Shown here one piece after another: positions 2,808-55,315 of a stretch of DNA of 64,000 nt. The stretch spans positions 25,832,293-25,896,292 of the forward strand of contig NC_079514.1 of assembly GCF_000801105.2 (NCBI RefSeq), given 5' to 3'. A program made the translations under genes and the position numbers. The DNA is from Raphanus sativus (lineage: Eukaryota; Streptophyta; Magnoliopsida; Brassicales; Brassicaceae). The notes beneath the pieces are model-generated. The model saw only the letters and a list, made by a program, of their open reading frames with translations. It searched no databases and was not told where the DNA came from. How positions within the stretch are numbered: the stretch's first letter is position 1; each line of letters starts with the position of its first letter.

Positions 2808-3046
2808 TGTTGGGGTCAAAATCGGTCAAGACGAAATCGATGTCTGAAAGTCTCGGAAAAACATGAAAAATGTTAGAGCAACCTCGAGAGACTAATTGTT
2901 AATCGAGAAACCTCGGGAAATATTAAGTTCGAGATTAATCATCTCGAAATCAACTGCTAGAAACATTTTCTACACAAGGAAAAACCTACGGAAAACTAAA
3001 AACGCAAAAAACACGCACACACCGAAGGAACCGAGCAGCCAACTCC

Positions 3047-3535
3047 GGACGTGGCCGTGGCCGCCGGGCGGCTAGCCCCGTGCTGGCCGTGGCCGCCGGC
3101 GGCTAGCGCCCGTGCTGGCCGTGCCCGCCGGGCGGCAAGCCCCGTGCTGGCCGTGGCCGCCGCCGGCTAGCGCCCGTGCTGGCCGTGGCCGCCGGGCGGC
3201 TAGCCCCGTGCTGGCCGTGGCCGCCGGCGGCTAGCGCCCGTGCGGCCGTGGCCGCCGGCGGCTAGCGCCCGTGCTGGCCGTGGCCGCTGGGCGGCTAGCC
3301 CCGTGCTGGCCGTGGCCGCTGGGCGGCTAGCCCCGTGCTGGCCGTGGCCGCCGGCGGCTAGCGCCCGTGCTGGCCGTGGCCGCCGGGCGGCTAGCCCCGT
3401 GCTGGCCGTGGCCGCCGGCGGCTAGCGCCCGTGCTGGCCGTGGCCGCCAGGCGGCTAGCCCCGTGCTGGCCGTCGCCGCCGGCGGCTAGCGCCCGTGCTG
3501 GCCGTGGTCGCCGGGCGGCTAGACCCGTGCTGGCT
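3047..3535 (+). repeat. GC-rich minisatellite in T1 5' LTR, about 15 units
   Basis: About fifteen imperfect units of 31-32 bp, each built on GTGCTGGCCGTGGCCGCC followed by a GGCTAGC core. Two unit types tend to alternate, one ending GGCTAGCCCC and one GGCTAGCGCCC, giving a higher-order period near 63 bp. Three units remain in the T1 3' LTR, ten in D's 5' LTR and twelve in D's 3' LTR. ORFs here (Ala/Arg/Pro/Trp-rich) are by-products of composition. Confidence 0.9.
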
Positions 3536-4065
3536 CGAGTCATCGGACGGCTAGTCTTCGTGCGTAAGTTCTAGGCCTCCGGGGCGCCAGAAATCCGTGT
3601 TTTGCGACTTTCCGAGATCCCGCAAACAAAACTCGTTTTCCTGCTCCAAGATTCCAAAGAACCCGTAAGACGTCAACGGACATGAAGACTTCGTATAAAA
3701 CGGCGATGGTTATCTTAAAACACCATGTGCCTCAGCAATGGATCGAAGATCTTCCGAAAGACTCGACATCCAAGTAGGAGCATTCTTTCAAAGAAAATCG
3801 TAGAAAACAGCGGAAGACCGGAAGACGGCCCGAAAGGGACCAAACCCGATCGAACAACCCGTTTACGATTTTCTAAAAGAATAGATACGACGGTTTACAA
3901 TTATCTTCGCATGACAAGATAAATGTTAAACTTCCGAAAAGATAAATGTCAACTTTCCGAAAAGATAAATGTCAACTTTCCCGATAAACGCGAAAGCCGA
4001 CGAAAATGGAAAAAGTCCAGCCCGCGGCGGACTCAGCCCATCAAGGATAAACCGTCATATGGGAG

Positions 4066-4073
4066 TATATAAG
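4066..4073 (+). promoter_or_regulatory. TATA box of T1 5' LTR
   Basis: TATATAAG within GGGAGTATATAAGC, repeated in the 3' LTR at 10701-10708 and with a counterpart at 48589-48596 in D's 5' LTR. It lies about 380 bp before the LTR end, suitable for the U3/R boundary. Confidence 0.65.
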
Positions 4074-4453
4074 CAAAGCTAGGAGCAGAGGAAGGGGGAT
4101 CCGAAATCAGAAGAAAGAAACCACTCCAGAGCAACTTAGAACTTAGGCGCTTATTTCCTTTTTTAGCGAGCTGCGACTCAACTAGGTTAGATCTAGGTTT
4201 TGAGACTAGCGACGATCGACAGCTCTTGCGGCCGAGATCTCGACCTGTTGTCCAACGCTCTCCGCAGATTCGGAAATAAGATTCTTTATTTTTGCTCTCT
4301 TTATTTTACGCATTTATTCCCAAACTAGACTCGTATTAACTGTGTCGTGCGTGGCCCAGCAGATAGCCGGGATCCTCGGGGAAAACTAGGTCAACTTAGT
4401 TTTCCTACGTTTTAACTTAACTAAAATCGACAGTGCGAATTTCGGTTCCCACA

Positions 4454-4475
4454 GTTTGGCGCTAGAAGGAGGGGG
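4454..4475 (+). other. T1 primer-binding site
   Basis: GTTTGGCGCTAGAAGGAGGG directly follows the LTR terminus CCCACA. The same sequence follows the F1 LTR (2496) and, with one T fewer, the D LTR (48972). The tRNA partner was not assigned from memory. Confidence 0.8.
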
Positions 4476-4520
4476 ATTCACGGCTTTATCTTTCTCGCAA
4501 CTACGCACGCCCAGTTAAGC

Positions 4521-7076
4521 ATGTCTGTTGACGCGGAAAAAGACAAGCAAACACACGACGGACCAGCCGTCGATGTCAACGCTGAGAAGACTCCTGATGG
4601 AAACGTATCGACGGTCACTGCCGAGGCAAACACCGCGATGCTGGACCAGGTGAAGGAACTGTTCGCCACCGCCCAGAAACGGTCGGAAGAACAAGAGAAA
4701 CTAATGGCTTCACTCGCTAAACAGGTCAATACCTTAACAGCGAAAAGCAAACTCCCGCGCGGATCCACCAAGGTGAGGCGTGTCAGGAGGCTCGACTTCG
4801 GAACTTCCGGAGACCAAGAAAAAGATGCCCCGAGAAAATCCCCGGAACTCATCCCTGACGATACCACTCCGACGGGGCAGAAGAAAACGACGGGCAACCT
4901 TCCACCTCCTGCAAGGGACAACGAAGGAGACGACGTCGAAAGAATCAATCTGGATGTCAGCGATCAAACGGATCCGTCCGACGAAGACGCCGACATCCAC
5001 CACAGAAGGACCCGAAGTCAGTCAGCTCGACTGGCGGCAGCCTTCGAAAACCCCATGACAGAAGAGGAAGAAGACCTCTACTGGTCAGAGCAAGAAAGGT
5101 TGGCTGAGGACCAGACTCGGGCCTATCGCCGCCAGCGTAGACAGAGGAGCGCGAACGGCGCCAACGAGATCCACGATTTGCGCGAGTACATCGCCAAAAC
5201 TGCAGCCGAGGTGAAAGCGGTAAAATCGCAGATTCACCACGCGACCAGCACTGCCCCCGAGATCGACCTGCTCCTCGAGGAGTCGAGAAAAACTCCGTTC
5301 ACCTCTCGAATCACGGAGACACGAGTCTCAGATCCTGGGAAAATAAAGCTTCCCACCTACGATGGAACCACAGACCCAAAGGCACATCTGCAGTCTTTCC
5401 AGATTGCGATGGCAAGGTCTAAACTTCCGGAGCGGGAAAAGGACGTCGGCTGCTGTCTCCTATTCGTCGAGAACCTCAGAGGTGCTGCGCTCGAGTGGTT
5501 CTCACACTTGAAAAGAAACTCCATCGGAAGTTTCCGCCAGCTTGCTTCAGCTTTTCTGAAGCAATTCTCCATGTTCATGGACAGGGAAACTTCCGACGTA
5601 GACCTTTGGAGTCTAATTCAAAAGGAAGACGAACCGCTCCGCGACTACATAAGAAGGTTCAAACTCGTGATGTCCAGGGTAACAGGCCTCAGCGACAGAG
5701 TCGCCATCGACGCCCTGAGGAAAAACCTCTGGTACAAATCGAAATTCCGAAAGTGGATTTCTCTGGAAAGGCCACGCACCATCCAGGACACTCTCCACAA
5801 GGCGACGGATTTCATCATCATGGAAGAAGAGATGAAAATCCTAGCGCAAAAGCATGGACCGCCGAAAGCGTCCGGCAAGAAGAAAACCTCTCGTAACGAC
5901 AAGTACGTCCATCACGAAGGGGAAGACATCCAAGGCGAACATAACTACGCCGTTAATTCCGAACAAGGAAGGACCGCCGGAAACACCTGGACGCGGAACT
6001 CGTACAAGGACAATTCCAGCTGCGAGTTCCATCAGACGAGAGGTCACTCCACCGCCAACTGCAAAGTCCTCGGCGCTAGACTCATTATGAAGCTGCTCGA
6101 CGGCAAACTAGCAACGGTCAAGAGCATGAAAGACCTGATCCTAGATTCTGACCGTCCGCCGAAGACCGACGGAGCCAATCCCGAGAATAACGCTCCTGGA
6201 ACTCAATCGGGCGAAAAACGCGAACGGAGACAAGACGGCGAAGGAAACAACAACAACCGCCAAAGGATCAACATGGTCATCGGAGGATCGCATTTTTACC
6301 AGGACTCCGTTTCGTCGATCAAAGCCTACGGACGGAAGGCCGAGACAAGCCCCGAATGGTGTCCAGAGGACGACGTTCCCAGTCACGCAATCACCTTCGA
6401 GGAACAGGATACGACCGGACTCGATAAACCTCACTACGATCCTCTGGTCATCGACTTGGTGATTCAGGATCTCGAAGTCGGCCGCATCCTCATCGATACA
6501 GGGAGCACGGTCAACATCATGTTCCGCGACACTCTGCAGAGGATGAACATACCCCTCGGAGAAGTCATCCCAGAACCGAGACCATTAACTGGATTCTCGG
6601 GCGTCACATCCATGACCCTCGGAAAAATCAGACTCCCGGTCATGGCTAAAGAAGTCACGAAGATCGTCGAATTCGCAGTAGTGGATAACCCGGCTATCTA
6701 TAACGCCATAATGGGAACTCCTTGGATAAATGCCATGAAGGCAGTCCCGTCCACTTACCATCTCGGCGTCAAGTTTCCAACACCAACTGGAACAGCGGTA
6801 ATCTGGGGAAGCCAAAAACAGTCGCGGCTCTGCTTCCTAGCCGAACATAAACTTCGCAGCAATCGGAACGCCCCAGTAGCTAACCCGAAGCGAACCAAGA
6901 AGAACCTGAGTACCTCCGAGAACTCAGCAAAAAACAACTCGGATTTGACCAAGCAGGCCACAACTCAGGATAGTGAGAAAATCCTCGAGTCCGTCGCCGA
7001 AAAAACGGATAACCCAACTCCCGACGCGACCGCCGACTTAGCTGAAACAGTCAAGGCGCCGGAAATCGTGGAGTAA
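4521..7076 (+). CDS. T1 gag-protease polyprotein (851 aa)
   Basis: One uninterrupted ORF starting at ATG 4521, the first ATG after the leader. The N-terminal third is charged and low complexity. Around residues 255-440 is the capsid-like gag domain ([18 protein letters not shown], then a WF.HL motif, then a RRFKL segment). Near residue 501 is a zinc-knuckle variant, [14 protein letters not shown], spaced C-x2-H-x4-H-x4-C. Around residues 640-760 is a retropepsin-like protease: [10 protein letters not shown] has its catalytic Asp at residue 659, and an AIMGTPW flap-distal motif follows. The ORF stops at TAA 7074 with no RT. The protein should form the virus-like particle and process itself in the cytoplasm. 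Intactness suggests recent function. Confidence 0.92.
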
Positions 7077-8077
7077 TAGCAACCGTGATAGAAACAGAAC
7101 TACGAGATGGCTTGATCCTCGCAAGAGGTACGTAGGCAGCTCGTCGCAACCCGACGAGTTCAGCTATCCCCCTCACCAAAAAGGGGGGGGGAGGAAGATG
7201 GGGACAGACATCCTTGTACTCCCGCAAAAACACTTTTCATGTAATCTACATTATAAATTATAAATTCTTTTGAATCAAATGCTTACTCAACGCGTAAACA
7301 TTAAGGAAAACGAAAATCATATCTTTGAGGAACGCGAGACGTCGTTAGTTCCCGAAAAGTCTTGATTCTCCATTCTCCTCCAAACAGTCCATCCGCGACT
7401 CTAAAAACTCCACCAAACAGTCCATCCGCGACTCTAAATTCGCTTCCGTCGATTGACCCCGACGGAAAAATATAGAAACGTTTCACTCAATCAAATTCGT
7501 AGTCCGGCTTCTAACGGAGTCCTTTTGCATCCGACAAGGATATCATAGCGCGCTATACAAAAAATCCAAATTTTGGTTAGCTCTTCGTAAAGGAAGTAGC
7601 TCGACCCGTATCCAAACGAATCATATAAGCCGATAAGCAATTCGCAGATTCTAGAACGGTACGAGTCAGGTCGAAATCGCAAACAAGCAAAACGAAAGTC
7701 GATTTGTCATCGCACAGCTTCAGTCCGAAAATAGACCTAGGTCTTGCCCTAAACCCGGCCTTGCTGGTATCTAAGACATCTCATAGGCATAAGTATCCAG
7801 AATACGAGATCCCAAAATTTGCCTCTTATCGCTTACAAACCTAACGTTCGCTACAAAGTGACCTACGGACCTAGCAACAAAAAAAAAGAGATTGAATGCG
7901 AAGTGACTACACGTATTCAAACCCTCTACACTTGACGAAAGTATAAATCAAAACGCATAATTCATAAAAAACATTTATAACAGGGATTCGAAAGCCACCA
8001 ACGGCCGATCCCGAAAAACACAAAGTCACACGACCTCCTAAGGGTCGCAACACATACATACGGCCACACTTGGCCTA
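7077..8077 (+). other. T1 non-coding region where pol is missing
   Basis: About 1 kb without a supported gene. The first part contains ACAGAACTACGAGATGGC and GGTACGTAGGCA, the same blocks that follow the integrase stop in D (52937 onward). A later block (about 7525-7790) is again shared with D (about 53375-53645). This collinearity shows that the 3' untranslated region is kept and pol alone is lost. A G-run lies at 7183-7192. Confidence 0.8.
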
Positions 8078-9906
8078 TCACAAGTTATAATCAAATGCAT
8101 AACAGTCGGTTAGAGATATTCCGAACGAAGAGTCGGGCTGGTCAACCTCTTCACCCCCGTCGCCTGCATTTGAACCCTCGCCTACATCCGCCGTATCCTC
8201 CGAGACCTGGATAGGATTCCACAGTTCTCGAATTCTCCCTTCGATCGGAGGTACAAAGGATTCGGCGTTGGCACATATTCTCATCGAGCCATCCATCGTG
8301 GCAAGTTCGCTGGAAAGAGAGAAGTCCTCACGCTGCATCTTGTTAAGAGTACCGACCGAACCACGGCACTCGCGAAAATCACCTACAAAGTCCTGAGCCT
8401 CTTTGTACGCTTCGAACTCGGTAGAAAAAATTTCGGCCCTTCGGTTCAGCTCGGCGGCAGCTCTTCTCCGTCCGCTCCTTTCCGCACGAACGAGGGCTCG
8501 AGCCTGGACCTTGGCTTGCCGGCGATTTTTCTCCTCCACCTCCAACCGATACTTAGCAAATTCCCTTTCCGTTTCGTCCGCTTTGAAACGGGCCAGCCGG
8601 GCAGTGCGGAAACTCCCATCGATCGATGAATTCCAAACTCTCACGGCCTGCAAAGAAGCCGAGGTCAAATAAAAAGAAAAGAGGAGTTACTCAAGTTTCA
8701 AAAACAAACCTCGTTGACCAAGCGAGCACCCTCCGCAGTCACCTTGTCCCTCTCCTCGTTGTCCAAAGACTCGTCACGGGAAAACGCCGGAGGGAGTTCG
8801 TCAAAGAAGTCACCCGGGAGAGGAACATCCCGATTCTCTGAGGTAAAGCTAGGATCATATCTCGGCGGCGCGCCATCTCCCGACGAAGTCTCGAAAGCGA
8901 TCCCTTTATCCTTACGAGGTCTCCGCCTCTTCCTTAAAGGGGCAAAAACGTAGGATCTATCATTGACGCAGGGCCGCGTACCACCTCGCGATCGGTGAAG
9001 CGCGACCGCCCCTCGAATCCGGTCGAGAGTGAAGGAGTTCCAGGAACAAGGCCTCGACCTAAAGATGTCCCTCTTGACCGAAAGATCGGAAGGAACATGC
9101 GCGAGACACCTGTTCTCTAAAAAAAAAAAAAAAAAAAAAAAACAAACGCACGTTCAGTACTCGCCTTTCGGATTCTAAGAGAGGGGATGCGGCAATCTTA
9201 CCTCGCTGGTACAACCAGTCCGTCGGAAATAGGTGGAGAAAGCCTTCCTCGACAGACTCTCCATCTATCCTCACAAAAAGAAACGATCAACATGATCCTT
9301 GGCGTGCGAGGTAACTCCACGGATGACCGAAAAATTGGTCCTCGCCTTCATGGAGTATACTCCATTGATGCTTGTCGCCTTGGAGTTCCATAACCCTTCG
9401 AAATCGGCAGGGCTAAGGTCTATCCCTAACTCGTAACTCAAAATCATAACTCCAAGCCAGCTCTCCAAAGCTGACACGTTCAGCTGGCTGATGGCGATTC
9501 CGAACCGGTCGAGGGCCTGAACGATGATTCCAGGGATTGGGAACCACAGTCGGCATTGCGTCAAGAACGCCTCGTAACAAGTAAAGTAACCTTCCGGAAG
9601 GATGCTCCGAACTCTCATTCCCACGGGGAATGCGAAACACGACTCCCTTCGGAACCTCATAAAACTATCGAAGAATTCCGAGATATTCGGGGATACTTCG
9701 CTCGGTGAGTCAATTTCCTTACGCATCCTCAGAGGTCGCCGGGGAATCGGAATCACGGGAAGAGGAGCATCAGAACCAAAGACAGCGTCGCAGTACGCGT
9801 TCCTGTTGATCTCTGAAACCTCGGGCTTCGGAACTTCTTCCTCGGCGTGAAAACTATCCGAAGACGAGTGAGATTGCCTCCTCGAAGATTTTGATCTTGA
9901 AGTCAT
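8078..9906 (-). CDS. T1 antisense gene, three predicted exons, with gypsy-associated domain
   Basis: A minus-strand gene opposite to gag. Exon 1 runs 9906-9202, exon 2 9116-8710, exon 3 8647-8078. Introns are GT-AG: 9201-9117 (donor GAG/GTAAGA, acceptor after a T-run of more than 20) and 8709-8648 (donor GAG/GTTTGT, acceptor TTTGCAG). Reading phase is kept across both, and exon 2 is open for all of about 136 codons. Exon 1 residues about 80-210 (ILPEGYFTCYEAFL, LWFPIPGIIVQALDRFGI) resemble the Pfam family described as putative gypsy type transposon (PF04195), from memory. Exon 3 is charged and probably coiled-coil (residues EREFAKYRLEVEEKNRRQAK). One single-base frame break in a T-run near 9275 puts a TGA at 9271-9273. 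A TATA box lies upstream. Function is unknown; extra antisense ORFs in this position are known for Tat-lineage elements. Confidence 0.75.
8648..8709 (-). other. Predicted intron 2 of T1 antisense gene
   Basis: 62 bp on the minus strand, from GTTTGTTTTTG to TTCTTTGCAG, T-rich before the acceptor. Both flanking exons are in phase 0, and removal keeps the frame. Confidence 0.7.
9117..9201 (-). other. Predicted intron 1 of T1 antisense gene
   Basis: 85 bp on the minus strand, starting GTAAGATTGCC and ending in a T-run of more than 20 followed by AG. Exon 1 ends in phase 1, and exon 2 from 9116 continues in the matching phase without stops. Alternative AGs lie at 9116-9115 and 9111-9110. Confidence 0.65.
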
Positions 9907-10002: not shown

Positions 10003-10124
10003 GGCAAAGATTTTACTATTCACCCCGACCTTCGACACGATTTCGTCTCCATACTTTCCTCGCGAACCATACCGCAAGCTAGGACCTACGAACCCTACGG
10101 CTCCTAGCTAGCTAGAGGGCTAAC

Positions 10125-11088
10125 TGTTGGGGTCAAAATCGGTCAAGACGAAATCGATGTCCGAAAGTCTCGGAAAAACATGAAAAATGTTAGAGCAACC
10201 TCGAGAGACTAATTGTTAATCGAGAAACCTCGGGAAAATATTAAGTTCGAGATTAATCATCTCGAAATCAACTGCTAGAAACATTTTCTACACAAGGAAA
10301 AACCTACGGAAAACTAAAAACGCAAAAAACACGCACACGCCGAAGGAACTGAGCAGCCAACTCCGGACGTGGCCGTGGCCGCCGGGCGGCTAGCCCCGTG
10401 CTGGCCGTGGCCGCCGGCGGCTAGCGCACGTGCTGGCCTTGGCCGCCGGCGGCTAGCGCCCGTGCTGAAAGGGACCAAACCCGATCGAACAACCCGTTTA
10501 CGATTTTCTAAAAGAATAGATACGACGGTTTACAATTATCTTTGCATGACAAGATAAATGTTAAACTTCCGAAAAGATAAACGTCAACTTTCCGAAAAGA
10601 TAAATGTCAACTTTCCCGATAAACGCGAAAGCCGACGAAAATGGAAAAAGTCCAGCCCGCGGCGGACTCAGCCCATCAAGGATAGACCGTCATATGGGAG
10701 TATATAAGCAAAGCTAGGAGCAGAGGAAGGGGGATCCGAAATCAGAAGAAAGAAACCACTCCAGAGCAACTTAGAACTTAGGCGCTTATTTCCTTTTTTA
10801 GCGAGCTGCGACTCAACTAGGTTAGATCTAGGTTTTGAGACTAGCGACGATCGACAGCTCTTGCGGCCGATATCTCGACCTGTTGTCCAATGCTCTCCGC
10901 AGATTCGGAAATAAGATTCTTTCTTTTTGCTCTCTTTATTTTACGCATTTATTCCCAAACTAGACTCGTATTAACTTTGTCGTGCGTGGCCCAGCAGATA
11001 GCCGGGATCCTCGGGGAAAACTAGGTCAACTTAGTTTTCCTACGTTTTAACTTAACTAAAATCGACAGTGCGAATTTCGGTTCCCACA
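10125..11088 (+). repeat. T1 3' LTR (964 bp)
   Basis: Starts TGTTGGGGTC after the tract AGAGGGCTAAC and ends GGTTCCCACA before AGCAT. It has only three minisatellite units (about 10370-10466) and jumps from the array straight to GAAAGGGACC, lacking about 300 bp present in the 5' LTR. Its TATA box is at 10701-10708 and the U5 stem at 11015-11023/11032-11040. Confidence 0.92.
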
Positions 11089-14437: not shown

Positions 14438-15770
14438 TGATAGTGCTCAAATTACCCAGTAGAGCTTACTCTCTCAAATAAGAGGTACAGCTGTAGTACT
14501 TAGGGATCGAATCACGAGGAGCTAGGGAACCAATTAAATAAAATCTACTAATCAATCCTAGGAGAAGTTGGTTTTAATGATGGAAATAAAAATAGCAATT
14601 CCTAAAATGAGCAAGGTGGTTGCTCTAACTAACAATATGATGGGTTGTTTAAATGTGATAAAGAGTGCTAGACATAGGGCTTTTATTCAAGAATGGAGAT
14701 TATAATCTATATAAATGCTTTAACAAGTTGCTTGCATGATACTATAGATCTCATCCGCTTAACTCAAGTGATGTATTACTGGTTAAATAATCTAGATCTC
14801 TGGCCTCAACTGTCGTAATGTTGACACAGAAAAAGAGTCGATCGATATCCTTTTGAGATATCGATCGATACACCTTTCGCAGCGCCGATCGATTCACCTG
14901 TCGCGATATCGATCGACGGCTTCTAGATATGCCTAGGCGCGAGCTGATAATGAACACTAGGTCTCAAGGAGGAGCTGTCGCTCTTCTCAACGGGAGACAA
15001 GCTAGCTCAAATGGATAATTCAATATAATCAAAGATCCTAGTGATCTATATTCTAGTTAGCTAATCTATAACAAGCATAGGGTGCAATCCATTTGATTAG
15101 TACCACAACATAGCAATTATAGTTTGGGGCTAATCCCACAAACCTATTTAAACCTTAGATCTAACAAGTAGACTACTCAGACATAGCTAAGCAATTCATG
15201 ACAATGGATAGATGAGAGAATTGCATAGATAGAAATAAGTAGAAATACAAAAGGAGATGAGAAATCTCTCCAATCTCTCAAAACAATATAAAACTCTAGT
15301 CTCTTGAGTTGTCAAAAGCTTGCTTCTTTCGAAGGTTGCCGTCAAAAAACACTTATCAGGAATATTTAAGCATTTCCATTAGGTTAAAAACTCGTCAGGG
15401 GCAATCTCGTAATTTTGTGAAGTCTTGGTGAAGTAGTCGGCTAAACCATTTCGTCCTCAATATCGATCGACAACACTGATGTGTATCGATCGATTATAAT
15501 CTTCTAGTACGCGGATCTTCTCAGCTACATCGATCGACAACGCAGGATGAGTATCAATCGATTCTTATCGTAATGTTGACTTCCGACTTGGTCTTGAATG
15601 GTCAACTCGGGTGTATCATCTCTTGTACTCCAAAATGCTCTAAAAACATCACTTTCTCACAAAATGCTCCTGAACCTGAAAACATACCTAACAGACTAGA
15701 AAACAGATTAAATATATAATAAAATACTAGTATACCATGGTTAAAAACGGGTAAAATCCATGGTATATCA
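14438..15770 (-). repeat. A 3' LTR (LTR1, 1333 bp)
   Basis: Bounded by TGATAGTGCT and CCATGGTATATCA. Next to it at 15771 is ATTCCCCCAGACTTACTCC, the reverse of a polypurine tract, so it is the 3' LTR of a minus-strand element. It contains six perfect TCGATCGA octamers and a 10-bp terminal inverted repeat (15731-15740 with 15758-15767). Confidence 0.9.
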
Positions 15771-16228
15771 ATTCCCCCAGACTTACTCCTTTGCTTGTTC
15801 TCAAGCAAAAACAGTAGTCTTTGGAAAATGTTTGAAAACAGCAGGGACTCAAAGATTCAAAATATTGAAGTCATAACTCTATGGGTTTGCAATTCATGTC
15901 TAGACATCCTAATCACTAAAGTTCATTATGCCTTATCTTAGCTTAGCAACCAAACTCATCTAGTCAACAACTTAGCAAATCTCATCTCGCATTCCTCTCT
16001 ACTAAACTTATTTCTTAACATAAAATAAAAGTGCAGGCTTTACCTTGGGAGTATCGATCAAAAGACACATGGATTCAACTCAAACAAGTATCTGAACACA
16101 CAGGTAGTCTTCTCTGATCCCTTTCTCCCCTCATCTCTCTTCTCTGAATCTCTTATTAGTTTTAATTTCAACAGGTTTCGATGCCACATAGGTCATCTAG
16201 TCCATCTCATTGACATTTGCATTGTAAT
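15771..16228 (-). other. A 3' UTR stub with polypurine tract
   Basis: The last 458 bp of A's internal region, reversed. It begins with ATTCCCCCAGACTT (polypurine tract on minus) and ends GTAAT at the B insertion point. No ORF is supported. The same stub follows LTRs 2-5. Confidence 0.8.
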
Positions 16229-17578
16229 TGATAGTGCTCAAATTACCCAGTAGAGCTTACTCTCTCAAATAAGAAGTACAGCTGTAGTACTTAGGGATCG
16301 AATCACGAGGAGCTAGGGAACCAATTAAATAAAATCTACTAATCAATCCTAGGCAAGTTTGGTTTATATGATAGAAATAAAAATAACAATTCCTAAAATG
16401 AGCAAGGTAGTTGCTCTAACTAACAATATGATGGGTTGTTTAAATGTGATAAAGTGTGCTAGACATAGGGTTTCTATTCAGGAATGGAGATTATAATCTC
16501 TATAAATGCTTTAAAGAGTTGCTTGCATGATACTATGGATCTCAGCCGCTTAACTCAAGTGAAGTGTCACTGGTTAAAATATCTAGATCTCTGGCCACAC
16601 CTTTCGCATGATGACACAGAAAAAGAGTCGGTCGATATCCTTTTGAGATATCGAGCGATACACCTTTCGCAGCGCCGATCGATCACCTGTCGGGATATCG
16701 ATCGATGGCTTCTAGATCTGCCTAGGCGCGAGCCGAATATGACCACAAGGTCTCAAGGAGGAACTGTCGTTCTTCTCAACGGGAGACAGGCAAGCTCAAA
16801 TGGATAATTCAAGATAATCAAAGATCCTAGTGATCTATGTTCTAGTTAGCTAATCTAAAACAAGCATAGGGTGCAATCCATTTGATGAGTATCACAACTT
16901 AGCAATTATAGTTTGGGGCTAATCCCACAAACCTATTTGAACCCTAGATCTAACAAGTAGACTACTCAGACATAGCTAAGCAATTCATAATAATAGATAG
17001 ATGAAAATATTGCATAGATAGAATAAAGTAGAAATACAAAAGGAGACGAGAAATCTCTCCAATCTCTCAAACAAATAAAACTCTAGTCTCTCTCTCACAC
17101 TCTCTGCTTTGAGGGTTGTTAAAAGGTTGCTTCTTTCGAAGGTTGCCGTCAAAAGACACTTAGCAGGAATATTTAAGCATTTTCATTAGGTTAAAAACTC
17201 GTCAGGGACAATCTCGTAATTTGGTGAAGTCTTGGTGAAGTAGTCGGCTAAACCATTTCGTCCTCGATATCGATCGACAACACTGGATGTGTATCGATCG
17301 ATTATAATCTTCTAATACGCGGATCTTCTCAGCTACATCGATCGACAACTCAGGATGAGTATCGATCGATTATAATCACAATGTTGACTTCCGACTTAGT
17401 CTTGTATGGTCAATTCGGGTGTATCATCTCCTGCACTCCAAAATGCTCTAAAAACATCACTTTCTCACAAAATGCTCCTGAACCTGAAAACATACCTAAC
17501 TGACTAGAAAACAGATTAAATATATAATAAAATACTAGTATACCATGGTTAAAAACGGGTAAAATCCATGGTATATCA
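16229..17578 (-). repeat. LTR2 of the array
   Basis: 1350 bp, TGATAGTGCT to GGTATATCA. It is preceded by GTAAT, a one-base variant of the GTAAC junction. It carries the palindromic octamers and terminal hairpin typical of this family. Confidence 0.88.
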
Positions 17579-18035
17579 ACTCCCCCAGACTTACTCCTTT
17601 GCTTGTCCTCAAGCAAAAACAATAGTCTTTGGAAAATGTTTGAAAACAGCAGGAACTCAAAGATTCAAAATATTGAAGTCATCACTCTATTGGTTTGCAA
17701 TTCATGTCTAAACATCCTAATCACTGAAGTTCATTATGCCTTATCTTAGCTTAGCAACCAAACTCATCTAGTCAACAACTTAGCAAATCTCATCTTGCAT
17801 TCCCCTCTACTAAACTTATTTCTTAACATAAAATAAAAGTGCAGGATTTACCTTGGGAGTATCGATCAAAAGACACATGGATTCAACCCAAACAAGTATC
17901 TGAACACACAGGTAGTCTTCTCTGATCCCTTTCTCCCCTCATCTTCTTCTCTGAATCTCTTATTAGTTTCAATTTCAACAAGTTTCGATGCCACATAGGT
18001 CATGTAGTCTATCTCATTGACATTTGCATTGTAAC

Positions 18036-19386
18036 TGATAGTGCTCAAATTACCCAGTAGAGCTTACTCTCTCAAATAAGAGGTACAACTGTAGTACTTA
18101 GGGATCGAATCACGAGGAGCTAGGGAACCAATTAAATAAAATCTACTAATCAATCCTAGGCAAGTTTGGTTTATATGATAGAAATAAAAATAACAATTCC
18201 TAAAATGAGCAAGGTAGTTGCTCTAACTAACAATATGATGGGTTGTTTAAATGTGATAAAGAGTGCTAGACATAGGGTTTCTATTCAGGAATGGAAATTA
18301 TAATCTCTATAAATGCTTTAACAAGTTGCTTGCATGATACTATAGATCTCAGCCGCTTAACTCAAGTCAAGTGTCACTGGTTAAAATATCTAGATCTCTG
18401 GCCACACCTTTCGCATGATGACACAGAAAAAGAGTCGGTCGATATCCTTTTGAGATATCGAGCAATACACCTTTCGCAGCGCCGATCGATTCACCAGTCG
18501 GGATATCGATCGATGGCTTCTAGATCTGCCTAGGCGCGAGCCGAATATGACCACAAGGTCTCAATGAGGAATTGTCGTTCTTCTCAACGGGAGACAGGCA
18601 AGCTCAAATGGATAATTCAAGATAATCAAAGATCCTAGTGATCTATGTTCTAGTTAGCTAATCTCAAACAAGCATAGGGTGCAATCCATTTGATGAGTAT
18701 CACAACTTAGCAATTATAGTTTGGGGCTAATCCCACAAACCTATTTGAACCCTAGATCTAACAAGTAGACTACTCAGACATAGCTAAGCAATTCATAACA
18801 ATAGATAGATGAAAATATTGCATAGATAGAATAAAGTAGAAATACAAAAGGAGACGAGAAATCTCTCCAATCTCTCAAACAAATAAAACTCTAGTCTCTC
18901 TCTCACACTCTCTGCTTTGAGGGTTGTTAAAAGCTTGCTTCTTTCGAAGGTTGCCGTCAAAAGACACTTAGCAGGAATATTTAATCATTTCCATTAGGTT
19001 AAAAACTCGTCAGGGGCAATTTCGTAATTTGGTGAAGTCTTGGTGAAGTAGTCGGCTAAACCATTTCGTCCTCGATATCGATCGACAACACTAGATGTGT
19101 ATCGATCGATTATAATCTTCTAGTACGCGGATCTTCTCAGCTACATCGATCGACAACTCATGATGAGTATCGATCGATTATAATCGCAATGTTGACTTCC
19201 GACTTAGTCTTGAATGGTCAATTCAGGTGTATCATCTCCTGCACTCCAAAATGCTCTAAAAACATCACTTTCTAACAAAATGCTCCTGAACCTGAAAACA
19301 TACCTAACAGACTAGAAAACAGATTAAATATAAAATAAAATACTAGTATACCATGGTTAAAAACGGGTAAAATCCATGGTATATCA
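18036..19386 (-). repeat. LTR3 of the array
   Basis: 1351 bp with the same termini. It matches LTR4 at all but about six positions by eye, including shared private changes (AGCAATACACC, CACCAGTCGGG, CAATGAGGAATTG). It marks the most recent duplication in the array. Confidence 0.9.
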
Positions 19387-19843
19387 ACTCCCCCAGACTT
19401 ACTCCTTTGCTTGTCCTCAAGCAAAAACAGTAGTCTTTGGAAAATGTTTGAAAACAGCAGGAACTCAAAGATTCAAAATATTGAAGTCATCACTCTATTG
19501 GTTTGCAATTCATGTCTAAACATCCTAATCAATGAAGTTCATTATGCCTTATCTTAGCTTAGCAACCAAACTCATCTAGTCAACAACTTAGCAAATCTCA
19601 TCTTGCATTCCCCTCTACTAAACTTATTTCTTAACATAAAATAAAACTGCAGGATTTACCTTGGGAGTATCGATCAAAAGACACATGGATTCAACCCAAA
19701 CAAGTATCTGAACACACAGGTAGTCTTCTCTGATCCCTTTCTCCCCTCATCTTCTTCTCTGAATCTCTTATTAGTTTCAATTTCAACAAGTTTCGATGCC
19801 ACATAGGTCATGTAGTCTATCTCATTGACATTTGCATTGTAAC

Positions 19844-21194
19844 TGATAGTGCTCAAATTACCCAGTAGAGCTTACTCTCTCAAATAAGAGGTACAACTGT
19901 AGTACTTAGGGATCGAATCACGAGGAGCTAGGGAACCAATTAAATAAAATCTACTAATCAATCCTAGGCAAGTTTGGTTTATATGATAGAAATAAAAATA
20001 ACAATTCCTAAAATGAGCAAGGTAGTTGCTCTAACTAACAATATGATGGGTTGTTTAAATGTGATAAAGAGTGCTAGACATAGGGTTTCTATTCAGGAAT
20101 GGAAATTATAATCTCTATAAATGCTTTAACAAGTTGCTTGCATGATACTATAGATCTCAGCCGCTTAACTCAAGTCAAGTGTCACTGGTTAAAATATCTA
20201 GATCTCTGGCCACACCTTTCGCATGATGACACAGAAAAAGAGTCGGTCGATTTCCTTTTGAGATATCGAGCAATACACCTTTCGCAGCGCCGATCGATTC
20301 ACCAGTCGGGATATCGATCGATGGCTTCTAGATCTGCCTAGGCGCGAGCCGAATATGACCACAAGGTCTCAATGAGGAATTGTCGTTCTTCTCAACGGGA
20401 GACAGGCAAGCTCAAATGGATAATTCAAGATAATCAAAGATCCTAGTGATCTATGTTCTAGTTAGCTAATCTCAAACAAGCATAGGGTGCAATCCATTTG
20501 ATGAGTATCACAACTTAGCAATTATAGTTTGGGGCTAATCCCACAAACCTATTTGAACCCTAGATCTAACAAGTAGACTACTCAGACATAGCTAAGCAAT
20601 TCATAACAATAGATAGATGAAAATATTGCATAGATAGAATAAAGTAGAAATACAAAAGGAGACGAGAAATCTCTCCAATCTCTCAAACAAATAAAACTCT
20701 AGTCTCTCTCTCACACTCTCTGCTTTGAGGGTTGTTAAAAGCTTGCTTCTTTCGAAGGTTGCCGTCAAAAGACACTTAGCAGGAATATTTAAGCATTTCC
20801 ATTAGGTTAAAAACTCGTCAGGGGCAATCTCGTAATTTGGTGAAGTCTTGGTGAAGTAGTCGGCTAAACCATTTCGTCCTCGATATCGATCGACAACACT
20901 AGATGTGTATCGATCGATTATAATCTTCTAGTACGCGGATCTTCTCAGCTACATCGATCGACAACTCATGATGAGTATCGATCGATTATAATCGCAATGT
21001 TGACTTCCGACTTAGTCTTGAATGGTCAATTCAGGTGTATCATCTCCTGCACTCCAAAATGCTCTAAAAACATCACTTTCTCACAAAATGCTCCTGAACC
21101 TGAAAACATACATAACAGACTAGAAAACAGATTAAATATATAATAAAATACTAGTATACCATGGTTAAAAACGGGTAAAATCCATGGTATATCA
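19844..21194 (-). repeat. LTR4 of the array
   Basis: 1351 bp, near-identical to LTR3. The flanking stubs before LTR3 and LTR4 also encode an identical 60-codon minus-strand frame (17866-18048 and 19674-19856), which is spurious but shows how recent the copy is. Confidence 0.9.
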
Positions 21195-21652
21195 ACTCCC
21201 CCAGACTTACTCCTTTGCTTGTCCTCAAGCAAAAACAGTAGTCTTTGGAAAATGTTTGAAAACAGCAGGAACTCAAAGATTCAAAATATTGAAGTCATCA
21301 CTCTATGGGTTTTGCAATTCATGTCTAAACATCCTAATCACTGAAGTTCATTATGCCTTATCTTAGCTTAGCAACCAAACTCATCTAGTCAACAACTTAG
21401 CAAATCTCATCTCGCATTCCCTCTACTAAACTTATTTCTTAACATAAAATAAAAGTGCATGCTTTACCTTGGGAGTATCGATCAAAAGACACATGGATTC
21501 AACTCAAACAAGTATCTGAACACACAGGTAGTCTTCTCTGATCCCTTTCTCCCCTCATCTCTCTTCTCTGAATCTCTTATTAGTTTCAATTTCAACAGGT
21601 TTCGATGCCACATAGGTCATGTAGTCCATCTCATTGACATTTGCATTGTACC

Positions 21653-22999
21653 TGATAGTGGTCAAATTACCCAGTAGAGCTTACTCTCTCAAATAAGAGG
21701 TACAGCTGTAGTACTTAGGGATCGAATCACGAGGAGCTAGGGAACCAATTAAATAAAATCTACTAATCAATCCTAGGCAAGTTTGGTTTATATGATAGAA
21801 ATAAAATAACAATTCCTAAAATGAGCAAGGTAGTTGCTCTAACTAACAATATGATGGGTTGTTTAAATGTGATAAAGAGTGCTAGACATAGGGTTTCTAT
21901 TCAGGAATGGAGATTATAATCTATATAAATGCTTTAACAAGTTGCTTGCATGATACTATAGATCTCAGCCGCTTAACTCAAGTGAAGTATCACTGGTTAA
22001 AATATCTAGATCTCTGGCCACACCTTTTGCATGATGACACAGAAAAAGAGTCGGTCGATATCCTTTTGAGATATCGAGCAATACACCTTTCGCAGCGCCG
22101 ATCGATTCACCTGTCGGGATATCGATCGATGGCTTCTAGATCTGCCTAGGCGCGAGCCGAATATGACCACAAGGTCTCAAGGGAAATGTCGTTCTTCTCA
22201 ACGGAAGACATGCAAGGTCAAATGGATAATTCAAGATAATCAAAGATCCTAGTGGTCTATGTTCTTGTTAGCTAATCTAAAACAAGCATAGGGTGCAATC
22301 CATTTGATGAGTATCACAACTTAGCAATTATAGTTTGGGGCTAATCCCACAAACCTATTTGAACCCTAGATCTAACAAGTAGACTACTCAGACATAGCTA
22401 AGCAATTCATAACAATAGATAGATGAAAATATTGCATAGATAGAATAAAGTAGAAATACAAAAGGAGACGAGAAATTTCTCCAATCTTTCAAACATATAA
22501 AACTCTAGTCTCTCTCTCACACTCTCTGCTTTGAGGGTTGTTAAAAGCTTGCTTCTTTCAAAGGTTGCCGTCAAAAGACACTTAGCAGGAATATTTAAGC
22601 ATTTCCATTAGGTTAAAACTGGTCAGGGGCAATCTCGTAATTTGGTGAAGTCTTGGTGAAGTAGTCGGCTAAACCATTTCGTCCTCGATATCGATCGACA
22701 ACACTGGATGTGTATCGATCGATTATAATCTTCTAGTACGCGGATCTTCTCAGCTACATCGATCGACAACTCAGGATGAGTATCGATCGATTATAATCGC
22801 AATGTTGACTTCCGACTTAGTCTTGAATGGTCAATTCGGGTGTATCATCTCTTGCACTTCAAAATGCTCCAAAAACATCACTTTCTCACAAAATGCTCCT
22901 GAACCTGAAAACATACCTAACATGCTAGAAAACAGATTAAATATATAATAAAATACTAGTATACCATGGTTAAAAACGGGTAAAATCCATGGTATATCA
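21653..22999 (-). repeat. LTR5, B 3' LTR
   Basis: 1347 bp. It starts TGATAGTGGTCAAATT and is followed by a stub (ACTCCCCAAGACTT) that continues without a break into the B body. It is therefore the LTR directly attached to B's 3' end. Its polypurine tract carries an A>T type change on the minus strand relative to the others. Confidence 0.88.
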
Positions 23000-24393
23000 A
23001 CTCCCCAAGACTTACTCCTTTGCTTGTCCTCAAGCAAAAATAGTAGTCTTTGGAAAAGGTTTTAAAATAGTAGGAACTCAAAGATTCAATATATTGAAGT
23101 CATCACTCTATGGGTTTGCAATTCATGTCTAAACATCCTAATCACAGAAGTTCATCATGCCTTATCCTAGCTTAGCAACCAAACTCATCTAGTCAACAAC
23201 TTAGCCATTCTCATCCGACATTCCCCTCTACTAACATCACTTCTTAACATAAAATAAAAGTGCAGGCTTTACCTTGGGAGTATCGATCAAAGGACACATG
23301 GATTCAACTCAAACAAGTATCTGAACACACAGGTAGTCTTCTCTGATCCCTTTCTCCCCTCTTCTCTCTTCTCTGAATCTCTTATTAGTTTCAATTTCAA
23401 CAGGTTTCGATGCCACATAGGTCATCTAGTCCATCTCATTGACATTTGCATTGTAACTCATACATTTTTGGCAAAGTGTAGCGAATAATGGGGTTCGGTA
23501 CTCAACCTATCCCTCGTTTCCACAATGTGTGATCATCCTTGAGATTTAGAATACTGGGGTCGCAGGAAACACTCTTACCCCTCTGCCTCTCAAGAAATCA
23601 TTTCAATCTTTTATAACATAAACTTAGATCTCGAGATGCCGAAGAGAGAGAAGGAAGGGAACCAGAAACGCACAGACTTTTTACCTTCCAGACTTGTAGG
23701 AGGATTCCGATCCAGTGATTTCCAAGCCCCAAGACAAGCAAATAAGTCAGTATTAGTGTTGGAGGTCAGCTTTGGTTCCTTCAAACAATCTTAGCTAGTG
23801 AATATAGGTGACCGGTTGATCCACTTTAGCATCTTTAGTACTATCTGCAATCAGTAATCTAAAATGGTGCTAACGAGTGGTCAGACAATCAAATATAAAT
23901 CCATATCAATGTTCCTATTTAATACTTATAGGAAAAATTATTTTGAAAAACAATTTGAATAAAAACCATAATAAAAAACACATATTAGTAACCCAGACTT
24001 AAATTACACTGTCCCAGTGTAACACAGCCAGTGGTGAGGTAAATAAAATAAAACATAATAAATAAATATAACAAGTTAGAATGAATAAACCTGATCGACA
24101 AGATGTCGATTGATTCGTAGTGGTATACATCGATCGCTATTAATGGTCGTGTGGTGTCGAGCGATATGAATGGTGAGTGTCGGTCGATGGAATTATCATT
24201 CTACTTGGATCTAATAAAACTGTAAAATAAATCCAAAAAAATAAAAGCAAAAATGAAAAATAAAATAAAATAAAGAAAAATAAAAGAAAACCTAATAGTG
24301 GGTTGCCTCCCACTCAGCGTTTTGTTATAGTCATTTAGCTTGACTGTGGTAGGTGAGTGACTCTGGGGTGCAGAAACTGCTGATTGCAGGACA
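23000..24393 (-). other. B 3' untranslated region
   Basis: About 1.4 kb between B's third ORF and its 3' LTR: the 458-bp stub, then AT-rich sequence with poly-A/T runs around 24230-24300. The block 23457-24100 recurs in A at 30999-31640 and reversed in C at about 57780-58410. No ORF is supported. Confidence 0.75.
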
Positions 24394-29643: not shown

Positions 29644-30994
29644 TGATAGTGCTCAAATTACCCAGTAGAGCTTACTCTCTCAAATAAGAGGTACATCTAT
29701 AGTACTTCGGGATCGAATCACGAGGAGCTAGGGAATCAATTAAATAAAATCTACTAATCAATCCTAGGCAAGGTTGGTTTATATGATAGAAATAAAAATA
29801 ACAATTCCTAAAATGAGCAAGGTAGTTGCTCTAACTAACAATATGATGGGTTGTTTAAATTTGATAAAGAGTGCTAGACATAGGGTTTCTATTCAGGAAT
29901 GGAGATTATAATATCTATAAATGCTTTAACAAGTTGCTTGCATGATACTATAGATCTCAGCCGCTTAACTCAAGTGAAGTGTCACTGCTTAAAATATCTA
30001 GATCTCTGGCCACACATTTCGCATGATGACACAGAAAAAGAGTCGGTCGATATCTTTTTGAGATATCGAGCGATACACCTTTCGCAGCGCCGATCGATTC
30101 ACCTGTCGGGATATCGATCGACGGCTTCTATATCTGCCTAGGCGCGAGCCGAATATGACCACAAGGTCTCAAGGAGGAACTGTCGTTCTTCTCAACAGGA
30201 GACAGGCAAGCTCAAATGGATAATTCAAGATAATCAAAGATCCTAGTGATCTATGTTCTAGTTAGCTAATCTAAAACAAGCATAGGGTGCAATCCATTTG
30301 ATGAGTATCACAACTTAGCAATTATAGTTTGGGGCTAATCCCACAAACCTATTTGAACCCTAGATCTAACAAGTAGACTACTCAGACATAGCTAAGCAAT
30401 TCATAACAATAGATAGATGAAAGAATTGCATATATAGAATAAGTAGAAATATAAAAGGAGACGAGAAATCTCTCCAATCTCTCAAACAAATAAAACTCTA
30501 GTCTCTCTCTCACACTCTCTGCTTTGAAGGTTGTTAAAAGCTTGCTTCTTTCGAAGGTTGCCGTCAAAAGACACTTAGCAGGAATATTTAAGCATTTCCA
30601 TTAGGTTAAAAACTCGTCAGGGGCAATCTCGTAATTTTGTGAAGTCTTGGTGAAGTAGTCGGCTAAACCATTTCGTCCTCGATATCGATCGACAACACTG
30701 GATGTGTATCGATCGATTATAACTTCTAGTACGCGGATCTTCTCAGCTACATCGATCGACAACTCAGGATGAGTATCGATCGATTATAATCGCAATATTG
30801 ACTTCCGACTTAGTCTTGAATGGTCAATTCAGGTGTATCATCTCTTGCACTCCAAAATGCTCCAAAAACATCACTTTTCTCACAAAATGCTCCTGAACCT
30901 GAAAAACATACCTAACAGGCTAGAAAACAGATTAAATATATAATAAAATACTAGTATACCATGGTTAAAAACGGGTAAAATCCATGGTATATCA
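29644..30994 (-). repeat. LTR6, B 5' LTR
   Basis: 1351 bp. One side is the primer-binding site, the other GTAACTCATACAATTTTGG, which is A's 3' UTR resuming exactly at the GTAAC target. It carries the same octamers and the 10-bp terminal hairpin as the array LTRs. Confidence 0.9.
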
Positions 30995-31747
30995 GTAACT
31001 CATACAATTTTGGCAAAGTGTAGCGAATAATGGGGTTTGGTACTCAACATATCCTCGTTTCCATAATGTGTGATCATCCTTGAGATTTAGAATACTGGGG
31101 TCGCATGAGACACTCCTACCCTCTGCCTCTCAAGAAATCATTTCAATCTTTTATAACATAAACTTAGATCTTGAGACGCTGAAGAGACAGGAGGAAGGGA
31201 ACCAGAAACACACAGACTTTTTACCTTCCAGACTTGTAAGAGGATTCCGATCCAGTGATTTCCAAGCCCCAAGACAAGCAAATAAGTCAGTATTAGTGTT
31301 GGAGGTCAGCTTTGGTTCTTCAAACAATCTTAGCTAGTGAATATAGATGACAGGTTGATCTACTTTAGCATCTTTAGTACTATCTGCAATCAGTAATCTA
31401 GAATGGTGCTAAAGAGTGGTCAGACAATCAAATATAAATCTATATCAATGTTCCTATTTAATACTTATGCGAAAAATAATTTTGAAAAACAATTTGAATA
31501 AAAACCAAAATAAAAAAACACATATTAGTAAACTCCCCCCCAGACTTAAATTACACTGTCCCAATGTAACACAGCCGGTGGTGAGGTAAATAAAATAAAT
31601 CATAATTAATAAATATAACAAGTTAGAATGAATAAACATGATCGACAAGGTGTCGATCGATTCTTAGTGGTATACGTTGATCGTTAGTAATGGTCGTGTG
31701 GTGTCGAGCCATATGAATGGTAAATGTCGGTCGACGGAGTCATCATT
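30995..31747 (-). other. A 3' UTR resuming beyond B
   Basis: Begins with the target duplication GTAAC and continues collinearly with B's 23452-24200. AT-rich with long A/T runs; no supported ORF. A C-run (31534-31540) precedes CAGACTTAAATT, a purine-rich motif on the minus strand that resembles but is not the terminal polypurine tract. Confidence 0.75.
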
Positions 31748-47257: not shown

Positions 47258-47815
47258 TGTTGGGCCCAAATATGACCCCCTAGCTAGTAATAGACTAAGA
47301 AATGATAACAGGCCGCGAAAGGCCCATCATGAATTCAATCTTCAAAAACAGCTAAGTCAGATCCGGAGGCTGTGAGCTGGAGATGTTCATCAGAGAGGTC
47401 AAGGAAAAGAGGCAGCTCGTTGACAAGTAAACAGGCGCAGGACCCGGTCAAAGAGGTGGACAAATAAATAGGCGCAGGACCCGGTCAAAGGGGAGCTGTT
47501 ACAAATCCCTCAAATCACGGAGAGGATCTCGGGAACCTGTTGGTAGCAACTGACGGAACCTGGAGCTATTTAAAGAGAAAATCAATCAAGAAAAAGGGAT
47601 TGGAATCCATTTTACATACAAGCTCTCAAGCAGTTATTTCTTTCTTTGTAAACATTATAAACATCTCTTGTAAACATTTCTTACCAAAAATCATCAATAA
47701 AATCATCATTCATTCTACAAGTTCTTACGGGATTCAGCCCACGATTATCTTTCCCTAATCCTTTTCTAAACTATAAACCTGACCTAAAATCATGAGGTGA
47801 GTTTAATCCCTCACA
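47258..47815 (+). repeat. E 3' LTR (558 bp)
   Basis: Starts TGTTGGGCCC after GCTGGGGGCAAC and ends CCCTCACA before GCCGC. It is nearly identical to the 5' LTR. Confidence 0.93.
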
Positions 47816-47820
47816 GCCGC

Positions 47821-48971
47821 CGGGTGGCTAGCCCCGTGCTGGCCGTGGCCGCCGGCGGCTAGCGCCCGTGCTGGCCGTGGCCGCCGGGCGGCTAGCCCCG
47901 TGCTGGCCGTGGCCGCCGGCGGCTAGCGCCCGTGCCGGCCGTGGCCGCCGGGCGGCTAGCCTCGTGCTGGCCGTGGCCGCCGGGCGGCTAACCCCGTGCT
48001 GGCCGTGGCCGCCGGCGGCTAGCGCCCGTGCTGGCCGTGATCGCCGGGCGGCTGGCCCCGTGCTGGCTCGGGACTTCGGATAACGATCTTCGGTACACGA
48101 ATCCCAATCCCCGACAATCTGAAGTCTGTACTTCGAGTCTTTCAGGACGAATCATCGAGATTCCGTGTACGAAGCTCCGCTTCTTACTCCAACCTAGGAC
48201 CGTCGGAAAACTTCGGAAACTCGTAAGATATCGACGGGAAGGAAGATCTCAAATTCTTCGTACGAAACAGCGATGGTTATCTTAAGACACCACTCGTCTT
48301 AACTCTACAAGCGAATGAAGAACTTCCGAAGAAATCGTAGAAAACAACGGAAGTCCTGGAAACGCCCCGAAAGGGACCAAACACGATCGGACAGTACATT
48401 TACGATTATCTGAGATGGATACGACGATTTACGTTTATCTTTACATAGCAAGATAAATGCTAAATTGCCGAAAGGACAAATGTCAAGTTTCCCGAAGATA
48501 AATGTCAAGTTTCCCGATGGAAGCCGACGAAAATGGAAAGAAGCCCGCCCTGCGGCCCAGAAGGAGAATAGACCGTCATAAGAAGGAGTATATAAAGGAG
48601 CTTTGGGAGAGGAAGAAAGGCAGAGCAAAAATCTGAGAGAGAGAGAGAGCAAATCCAAAACTTAGGGACTTAGAGAATTCCTGCTAGCTTAGGACTTAGG
48701 AGTTAGACTAGAAGAGCAAAGCTTAGAACGTTTTGTCTCCTTTATTTCCGTTGTTTTTCGCTTCAGCGTTTCTCTACTTCCCTTTTTCGGAAGAATATTG
48801 TACCACCTATTCAATAAAACGCCTTAGTGCAATTTTTCCGCTACGTTGCTTTATTCTATCAATTTCGTTTGGTTATCGCAGAGAATCCGAGCCTTCAGGG
48901 AAAACTAGGTTTACTTAGTTTTCCTTCGATTAACTTAACTAAAATCGACAGTGCGAATTTCGGTTCCCACA
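47821..48971 (+). repeat. D 5' LTR, second part
   Basis: Resumes in the GC-rich minisatellite (about eight more units to 48075) and ends GGTTCCCACA. It contains the TATA box TATATAAA (48589-48596), a polyadenylation-like AATAAA near 48813, and the 9-bp stem 48899-48907/48916-48924. Confidence 0.9.
48589..48596 (+). promoter_or_regulatory. TATA box of D 5' LTR
   Basis: TATATAAA in GGAGTATATAAAGG, homologous in position to T1's box. The D 3' LTR lacks this box because of a deletion of about 108 bp. Confidence 0.65.
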
Positions 48972-48993
48972 GTTGGCGCTAGAAGGAGGGGGG
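48972..48993 (+). other. D primer-binding site and leader
   Basis: GTTGGCGCTAGAAGGAGGG after CCCACA, lengthened by a G-run. Only 67 bp separate the LTR end from the protease ATG, so almost the whole leader and gag are missing. Confidence 0.82.
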
Positions 48994-49038
48994 GGGTCGG
49001 ATTCTCTTACTCAAAAACCTACGATTGGTAACAACAGC

Positions 49039-49542: not shown

Positions 49543-49544
49543 GC

Positions 49545-55136: not shown

Positions 55137-55195
55137 GTTTTCTGAAATTTGAGAAAAGGAGAGTGAGTGAAAAATGAGAGGGAGATGGGGTGCTA

Positions 55196-55203
55196 CTTAT
55201 AAG
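55196..55203 (-). promoter_or_regulatory. TATA box for D antisense gene
   Basis: The palindrome CTTATAAG gives a minus-strand TATAAG about 60 bases before the ATG at 55136. The leader between them is CT-rich (CATCTCCCTCTC, CTCACTCTCC). It corresponds in place to the T1 box at 9997-10002. Confidence 0.5.
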
Positions 55204-55315
55204 AAATCAAAGGTGGTAGAGTTTTTCGGAATAAAATATTCCTAGCCGAAAATTTCGATTTTCAAATCTTTCGCACGCAAAATCGCTCCCGCATCTTGCA
55301 TGCTGGGGGGCTAAC

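What the first reader, a model, noticed from the sequence alone, without database searches (positions are those of the whole stretch)
8078..9906. Spliced antisense gene inside a retrotransposon (T1)
Two GT-AG introns (9201-9117, 8709-8648) join three minus-strand exons in phase. The middle exon is open for about 136 codons yet contains no plausible start of its own. Splice sites are strong (GAG/GTAAGA; long T-run then AG). The protein joins a domain resembling the Pfam 'putative gypsy type transposon' family to a coiled-coil half. Antisense extra ORFs are known in Tat-type elements, but the intron structure and two-part design deserve study.
Basis: partly seen in the sequence, partly recalled or inferred. 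Interest (0 to 1): 0.8.

Follow-up and report, generated by a model that had tools for sequence, protein, structure and literature searches.

The report
Spliced antisense gene in radish retrotransposon
A family of radish jumping elements that lacks the copying enzymes still keeps, on the opposite strand, a three-exon gene whose protein is protected by natural selection; the copy in this window is a recently broken one.

Summary
The two-intron antisense gene is real at family level, but the copy in this window (T1) is broken. The genome is radish. T1 was compared with 53 other copies: exon lengths are almost fixed (706/407/570 nt), intron 1 varies freely (69-92 nt), GT-AG is kept in 54 of 54 (intron 1) and 53 of 54 (intron 2). 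31 of 54 copies read as an intact 560-aa spliced gene; among them dN/dS is 0.16, 0.17 and 0.10 for exons 1-3, third codon positions diverge as fast as intron 1, and every other frame on both strands is closed. Brassicaceae proteins join at the same points (94 of 120; 90 of 148). A TATA box lies 95-97 nt before the ATG in 33 of 33 copies. T1's exon 1 has three nearly private frameshifts and a stop. The protein joins a domain distantly related to Transposase_28 to a long coiled coil. The elements encode Gag-protease but leave no room for pol (6 of 6 others checked), yet this gene is as constrained as gag. Antisense Transposase_28 ORFs are known in Retand elements; the multi-exon form in a pol-less family was not found in my literature searches. 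No RNA data; function inferred.

The parts
9202..9906 (-). Exon 1 of the antisense gene, from ATG (9906) to the donor; frameshifted in this copy
   Evidence: 706 nt and open in the 31 intact copies
9380..9560 (-). Approximate stretch related to Transposase_28 (PF04195), placed by hand through the alignment with relative P0033
   Evidence: T1 itself has no PF04195 hit
9117..9201 (-). Intron 1 (phase 1), GTAAGA...TTTTAG, 85 nt, variable T-run
   Evidence: GT-AG in 54 of 54 copies
8710..9116 (-). Exon 2, 135 full codons
8902..8934 (-). Basic cluster in exon 2, possible nuclear localisation signal
   Evidence: sequence; a basic cluster in 31 of 31 intact copies; NLS function is inference
8648..8709 (-). 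Intron 2 (phase 0), GTTTGT...TTGCAG, 62 nt
   Evidence: GT-AG in 53 of 54 copies
8078..8647 (-). Exon 3: coiled coil, acidic tail, stop codon
   Evidence: one helix at residues 360-479 in the low-confidence model of relative P0153
9997..10002 (-). TATA box (TATAAA) 96 nt before the ATG, in the internal region outside the 3' LTR
   Evidence: present at -95 to -97 in 33 of 33 copies with enough flank
4425..7073 (+). Gag-protease ORF of the host element (883 codons, stop to stop)
   Evidence: Pfam Retrotrans_gag E 2.1e-18; protease hits below cut-off
7077..8077 (+). About 1 kb spacer between gag-protease and the antisense gene; no room for pol
   Evidence: same plan in 6 of 6 other copies, by BLAST of T1 pieces
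2808..4453 (+). 5' LTR with a long 32-bp tandem array
10125..11088 (+). 3' LTR with a short 32-bp array

Best explanation
T1 belongs to a non-autonomous Ty3/gypsy (Tat/Retand-type) radish family: LTR, Gag-protease, spacer, antisense gene, LTR. The antisense gene has its own TATA box just inside the 3' LTR and three exons; after splicing it encodes a 560-aa protein (N-terminal domain related to Transposase_28, basic patch, long coiled coil, acidic tail). Shown: conserved exon-intron structure, purifying selection on all three exons, intact copies, no room for pol in the copies checked. Inferred: transcription and splicing. Inferred: introns survive retrotransposition because the genomic RNA is made from the other strand, where their splice signals cannot be read, so the spliced antisense mRNA is not the template for new copies. 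Inferred, about 0.45: the protein is a nuclear, self-associating accessory regulator acting on the element's own chromatin, transcript or pre-integration complex, as HBZ does in HTLV-1 and as proposed for maize Grande GENE23. Its retention without pol suggests that it favours the copy or subfamily that carries it. T1 itself is dead for this gene.
For: 36 full-length or nearly full-length copies (T1 included) at 93-98% identity. Exon lengths nearly fixed, intron 1 variable. 31 of 54 copies intact; dN/dS 0.163/0.174/0.104; third-position divergence 0.085-0.096 against 0.093 for intron 1. All other frames closed. N/S against neutral expectation is 0.23 for variants in three or more copies and 0.51 for singletons, as expected if selection acts while copies spread and relaxes after insertion. 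tblastn matches to the Brassica protein P0153 break repeatedly at residues 239/240 and 376/377. Brassicaceae protein junctions exact in 94 of 120 and 90 of 148. TATA in 33 of 33. gag-PR dN/dS 0.159 in six close copies, so similar constraint. No room for pol in 6 of 6 other copies.
Against: No RNA evidence of any kind was available. The Brassicaceae proteins are mostly gene predictions, made with splice rules; 26 of 120 and 58 of 148 do not show the exact junction, and their genomic context was not seen. Intron 2 diverges less (0.062) than intron 1 and than third positions, so it is not clearly neutral. Singletons are not fully neutral (0.51). 23 of 54 copies are broken, T1 included. Copies were the best-scoring ones, so the intact fraction is not unbiased. 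The regulatory role rests on analogy; structure models were of low confidence and matched no solved fold clearly.
Confidence: 0.72

Rival explanations
1. The protein is a structural or transport factor rather than a regulator: it binds element cDNA or Gag particles through its N-terminal domain and brings the pre-integration complex into the nucleus or recruits pol supplied in trans.
For: It is kept beside Gag-protease in elements without room for pol and is about as constrained as gag; basic patch in 31 of 31 intact copies.
Against: It has its own antisense TATA box rather than being co-expressed with Gag; no clear fold match of any kind was found, which is weak evidence because the models are poor.
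Confidence: 0.25
2. The antisense transcript acts as RNA (dsRNA or siRNA control) and the ORF is incidental.
For: Antisense transcripts are discussed as RNA regulators in PMC7264820 (passages).
Against: dN/dS 0.10-0.17, one open frame per exon, nearly fixed exon and free intron-1 lengths.
Confidence: 0.04
3. A recently captured host gene, carried as a passenger with its introns.
For: A gene with introns and its own TATA box looks like a cellular gene; ancient capture from a host gene or DNA transposon remains possible as origin.
Against: Relatives are many and varied in Brassica, Raphanus, Eruca and Sinapis, and the same plan exists in a copy whose gag differs from T1's at dS 0.86; constraint continues during spread.
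Confidence: 0.08
4. No intron: the family uses separate ORFs or ribosomal frameshifting.
For: Exons 1, 2 and 3 lie in different frames in T1; no RNA seen.
Against: Intron 1 length varies between copies without regard to frame (12 of 31 a multiple of 3) and retained intron 2 carries an in-frame stop in 31 of 31 intact copies (for intron 1 only 18 of 31 do); GT-AG kept in 54 and 53 of 54; exon 2 of T1 has no Met.
Confidence: 0.03

Closest known systems
Antisense TRP28 (Transposase_28) ORFs of Retand elements (Vicient 2025, PMC11963269; abstract and passages seen)
   Same: Antisense gene on the pol-3'LTR side; related N-terminal domain; suggested regulatory role
   Different: There listed as single ORFs, in elements found through an uninterrupted RT domain; the word intron does not occur in the held main text. 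Here three exons, an element without RT, and selection measured.
Maize Grande GENE23 (through PMC7264820; passages; original paper not read)
   Same: Antisense accessory gene with its own promoter; protein reported nuclear
   Different: Splicing of gene23 is not mentioned in the passages seen; no sequence comparison made here
HTLV-1 HBZ / HTLV-2 APH-2 (Romerio 2023, PMC10186651; passages)
   Same: Antisense, spliced, protein-coding accessory gene of an LTR retroelement; HBZ is a bZIP (coiled-coil) regulator
   Different: No sequence relation sought or claimed; those promoters are in the 3' LTR, whereas here the TATA box lies in the internal region
Ogre and EVADE spliced retrotransposons (PMC12786077, PMC6317226; passages)
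   Same: Plant LTR elements with functional introns
   Different: As described there, splicing yields subgenomic or polyprotein mRNA of the element's own gag/pol transcript, not of an antisense gene

Membership tests
Pfam PF04195 Transposase_28 | Whole-protein score above the curated cut-off (26.2 bits) | tested here: not met
   No PF04195 hit for the T1 exon pieces nor for P0153 or P0070. Relative P0210 scores 26.9; P0033 19.5, P0195 19.3 and others below cut-off. So related through intermediates, not a member by score.
Retand lineage (Ty3/gypsy, Tat) | RT phylogeny and additional RNase H between RH and integrase | not testable with these tools
   T1 and the 6 other copies checked have no room for pol. 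Neighbour T3 has RVT_3 between RNase H and integrase.
Retand lineage (Ty3/gypsy, Tat) | Antisense coding region between the gag-pol side and the 3' LTR, usually with TRP28 | tested here: met
   Position and strand met; the domain relation is distant.
[quoted passage not shown]
   T1's 32-bp array lies inside the LTRs.
Spliced antisense accessory gene (works like HBZ) | Antisense coding gene with introns under protein-level selection | tested here: met
   (genomic evidence only)
Spliced antisense accessory gene (works like HBZ) | Spliced RNA and nuclear protein observed | not testable with these tools

The most novel reading that the evidence does not exclude
The window holds two halves of a two-part retrotransposon. 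T1-type elements supply Gag-protease and no pol; T3-type elements (about 47.7-56.6 kb) supply protease and pol and no Gag. They share LTR ends and neighbouring sequence, and each carries its own, different, spliced antisense coiled-coil gene. The antisense proteins would then be the kept control layer of the partnership, present in both halves although each half dropped a different set of core genes.
Probability: 0.35. Interest if true: 0.85.

Novelty: new variant of a known kind. Interest (0 to 1): 0.68.

Why it matters
In the papers seen, the roles of antisense genes in plant LTR elements are called unknown, and it is open whether they are spliced. Here many copies give sequence-level evidence: three exons under selection, intron 1 free to drift, in an element without pol that kept this gene. 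Introns on the antisense strand are also a natural strand lock: they should survive retrotransposition only because the replicating RNA is the opposite strand. Surveys that start from RT, or that list single ORFs, would miss such genes. The radish family is a testable system for what these proteins do.

Full report
What was claimed.

The sequence. The introns are at the stated places with the stated signals. Exon 2 is open for 135 codons without a Met, and exon 2 joins exon 3 in phase. Exon 1 as drawn does not reach its donor in frame: it has two stops in the ATG frame, and the last ~26 codons that fit the junction are in another frame. An inner stretch that matches Brassica relatives is also in a shifted frame and contains a stop.

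The element. Repeats place LTRs at about 2808-4453 and 10125-11088. Outside the array they differ by 7 mismatches in 622 aligned bases and by 7 mismatches and 3 gaps in 344, so the insertion is fairly recent. The sense strand codes for Gag with protease hits below cut-off. The 1 kb between that ORF and the antisense gene leaves no room for RT, RNase H and integrase. Six other copies have the same plan by BLAST with T1 pieces: gag-PR follows the LTR region and the spacer leads straight to the antisense gene (they were not scanned with RT profiles). One of them, L071, has a gag that differs from T1's at dS 0.86. The genome is taken to be radish because window contig C4 has the same length, 52,202,202, as the contig of Raphanus sativus protein P0032.

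Relatives as proteins. Searches gave 56, 160 (one listed) and 625 (one listed) relatives; the listed ones whose organism is shown are from Brassicaceae (Brassica, Raphanus, Eruca, Sinapis). Of the first 175 held, 32 contain all five T1 pieces. Of 268 held, 120 could be tested for the first junction and 94 agree exactly; 148 for the second and 90 agree exactly. Most are gene predictions, so this is support, not proof, of splicing. Some predicted ORFs (for example P0005, P0055) appear, by my reading, to run from exon 1 straight into intron 1 at the same place.

Relatives as DNA. The DNA search gave 36 full-length or nearly full-length copies including T1 and 4 partial ones (40 of 318 candidates scored); a protein search gave 165 exon matches from 76 scored of 1542 candidates, breaking at residues 239/240 and 376/377. 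T1 plus 53 non-duplicate loci were aligned. Intact, with start, splice sites, phases and one terminal stop: 31 of 54; 21 of the 36 DNA-search copies. All 31 have exons of 706, 407 and 570 nt; intron 1 runs from 69 to 91 nt in these, intron 2 is 62. Canonical dinucleotides: 54 of 54 and 53 of 54; the exception, L037, is a diverged copy where the alignment may be off. The diverged copy L038 has exons of 721, 413 and 570 nt, changed by multiples of three, with the same phases, but with a stop in exon 1 and in exon 2.

Selection. Pairwise among the 31: dN/dS 0.163, 0.174, 0.104; third positions 0.089, 0.096, 0.085; intron 1 without donor and T-run 0.093; intron 2 interior 0.062; 60 nt before ATG 0.026; about 60 nt after the stop 0.054. 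Choosing intact copies could lower dN/dS slightly. The count over copies with standard exon lengths (39, 42 and 42), intact elsewhere or not, gives N/S over neutral expectation of 0.51 for singletons, 0.38 for pairs and 0.23 for variants in three or more copies. A selected sense ORF cannot explain the pattern, as every sense frame of every exon has stops in all 31. gag-PR in six close copies has dN/dS 0.159.

The T1 copy. Its three exon-1 frameshifts are shared by 1, 0 and 0 of 50 copies, fitting decay after insertion.

Expression signals. TATAA(A/G) lies 95-97 nt before the ATG in 33 of 33 copies with enough flank, outside the LTR. The 560-aa product has a basic cluster in 31 of 31; in the one copy profiled for charge its last 40 residues carry net charge -11. 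The model of P0153 has an N-terminal mixed domain and one helix of about 120 residues; confidence is low and no clear fold match was found.

What it is like. The domain link to Transposase_28 is real but distant: P0210 passes the cut-off, T1 and its nearest relatives scanned do not. Antisense TRP28 ORFs occur in 97% of Retand clusters (PMC11963269, abstract), in elements found through uninterrupted RT domains; a pol-less family would be missed. Vicient and Casacuberta (PMC7264820, passages) asked that antisense and spliced transcripts be looked for. HBZ is the closest working parallel (PMC10186651, passages).

How it probably works (inference). Antisense Pol II transcription from the internal TATA box, splicing, a nuclear coiled-coil protein. 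The genomic RNA from the 5' LTR carries the introns as their complement, so they are not removed and pass to new copies. Since the gene stays constrained in elements that lack pol, its benefit should fall on the carrier copy or subfamily.

T3. A second element in the window has protease, RT, RNase H and integrase ORFs (the RT split over two frames) but no Gag hit in the ORFs scanned and only a protease-region match to T1's Gag-PR. It has LTR parts and edges like T1's, and an antisense gene that reads as 358 aa after removal of a 65-nt GT-AG intron. Its copies could not be examined.

Noticed in passing
window about 47744-56622 (T3): Element with protease and RT/RNase H/integrase ORFs (RT split over two frames) but no Gag hit, complementary to pol-less T1; LTR edges and parts of the leader and spacer match T1.
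   Followed up: partly
window 53996-55136, minus strand: T3's own antisense gene: 594-nt exon, 65-nt GT-AG intron (about 54542-54478), coiled-coil exon; 358 aa, no Transposase_28 hit in its pieces.
   Followed up: partly
window 14438-23525, also near 29644-30999 and 58872-61059: Unit of about 1,808 bp repeated head to tail, about five times, with further copies elsewhere, some inverted.
   Followed up: no
window 2988-3598 and 10247-10467: 32-bp tandem array inside the LTRs, much longer in T1's 5' LTR (1,646 bp) than in its 3' LTR (964 bp), although the rest is about 97-99% identical.
   Followed up: no
window 10107-10166: Low divergence between copies around the 3' LTR edge (0.000-0.009 over 60 nt), fitting constraint on polypurine tract and LTR end.
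   Followed up: no
L037, L038, L039: Diverged relatives (matched exon parts 67-71% identical) with introns at about the same places; a possible older subfamily, all three with lesions.
   Followed up: partly
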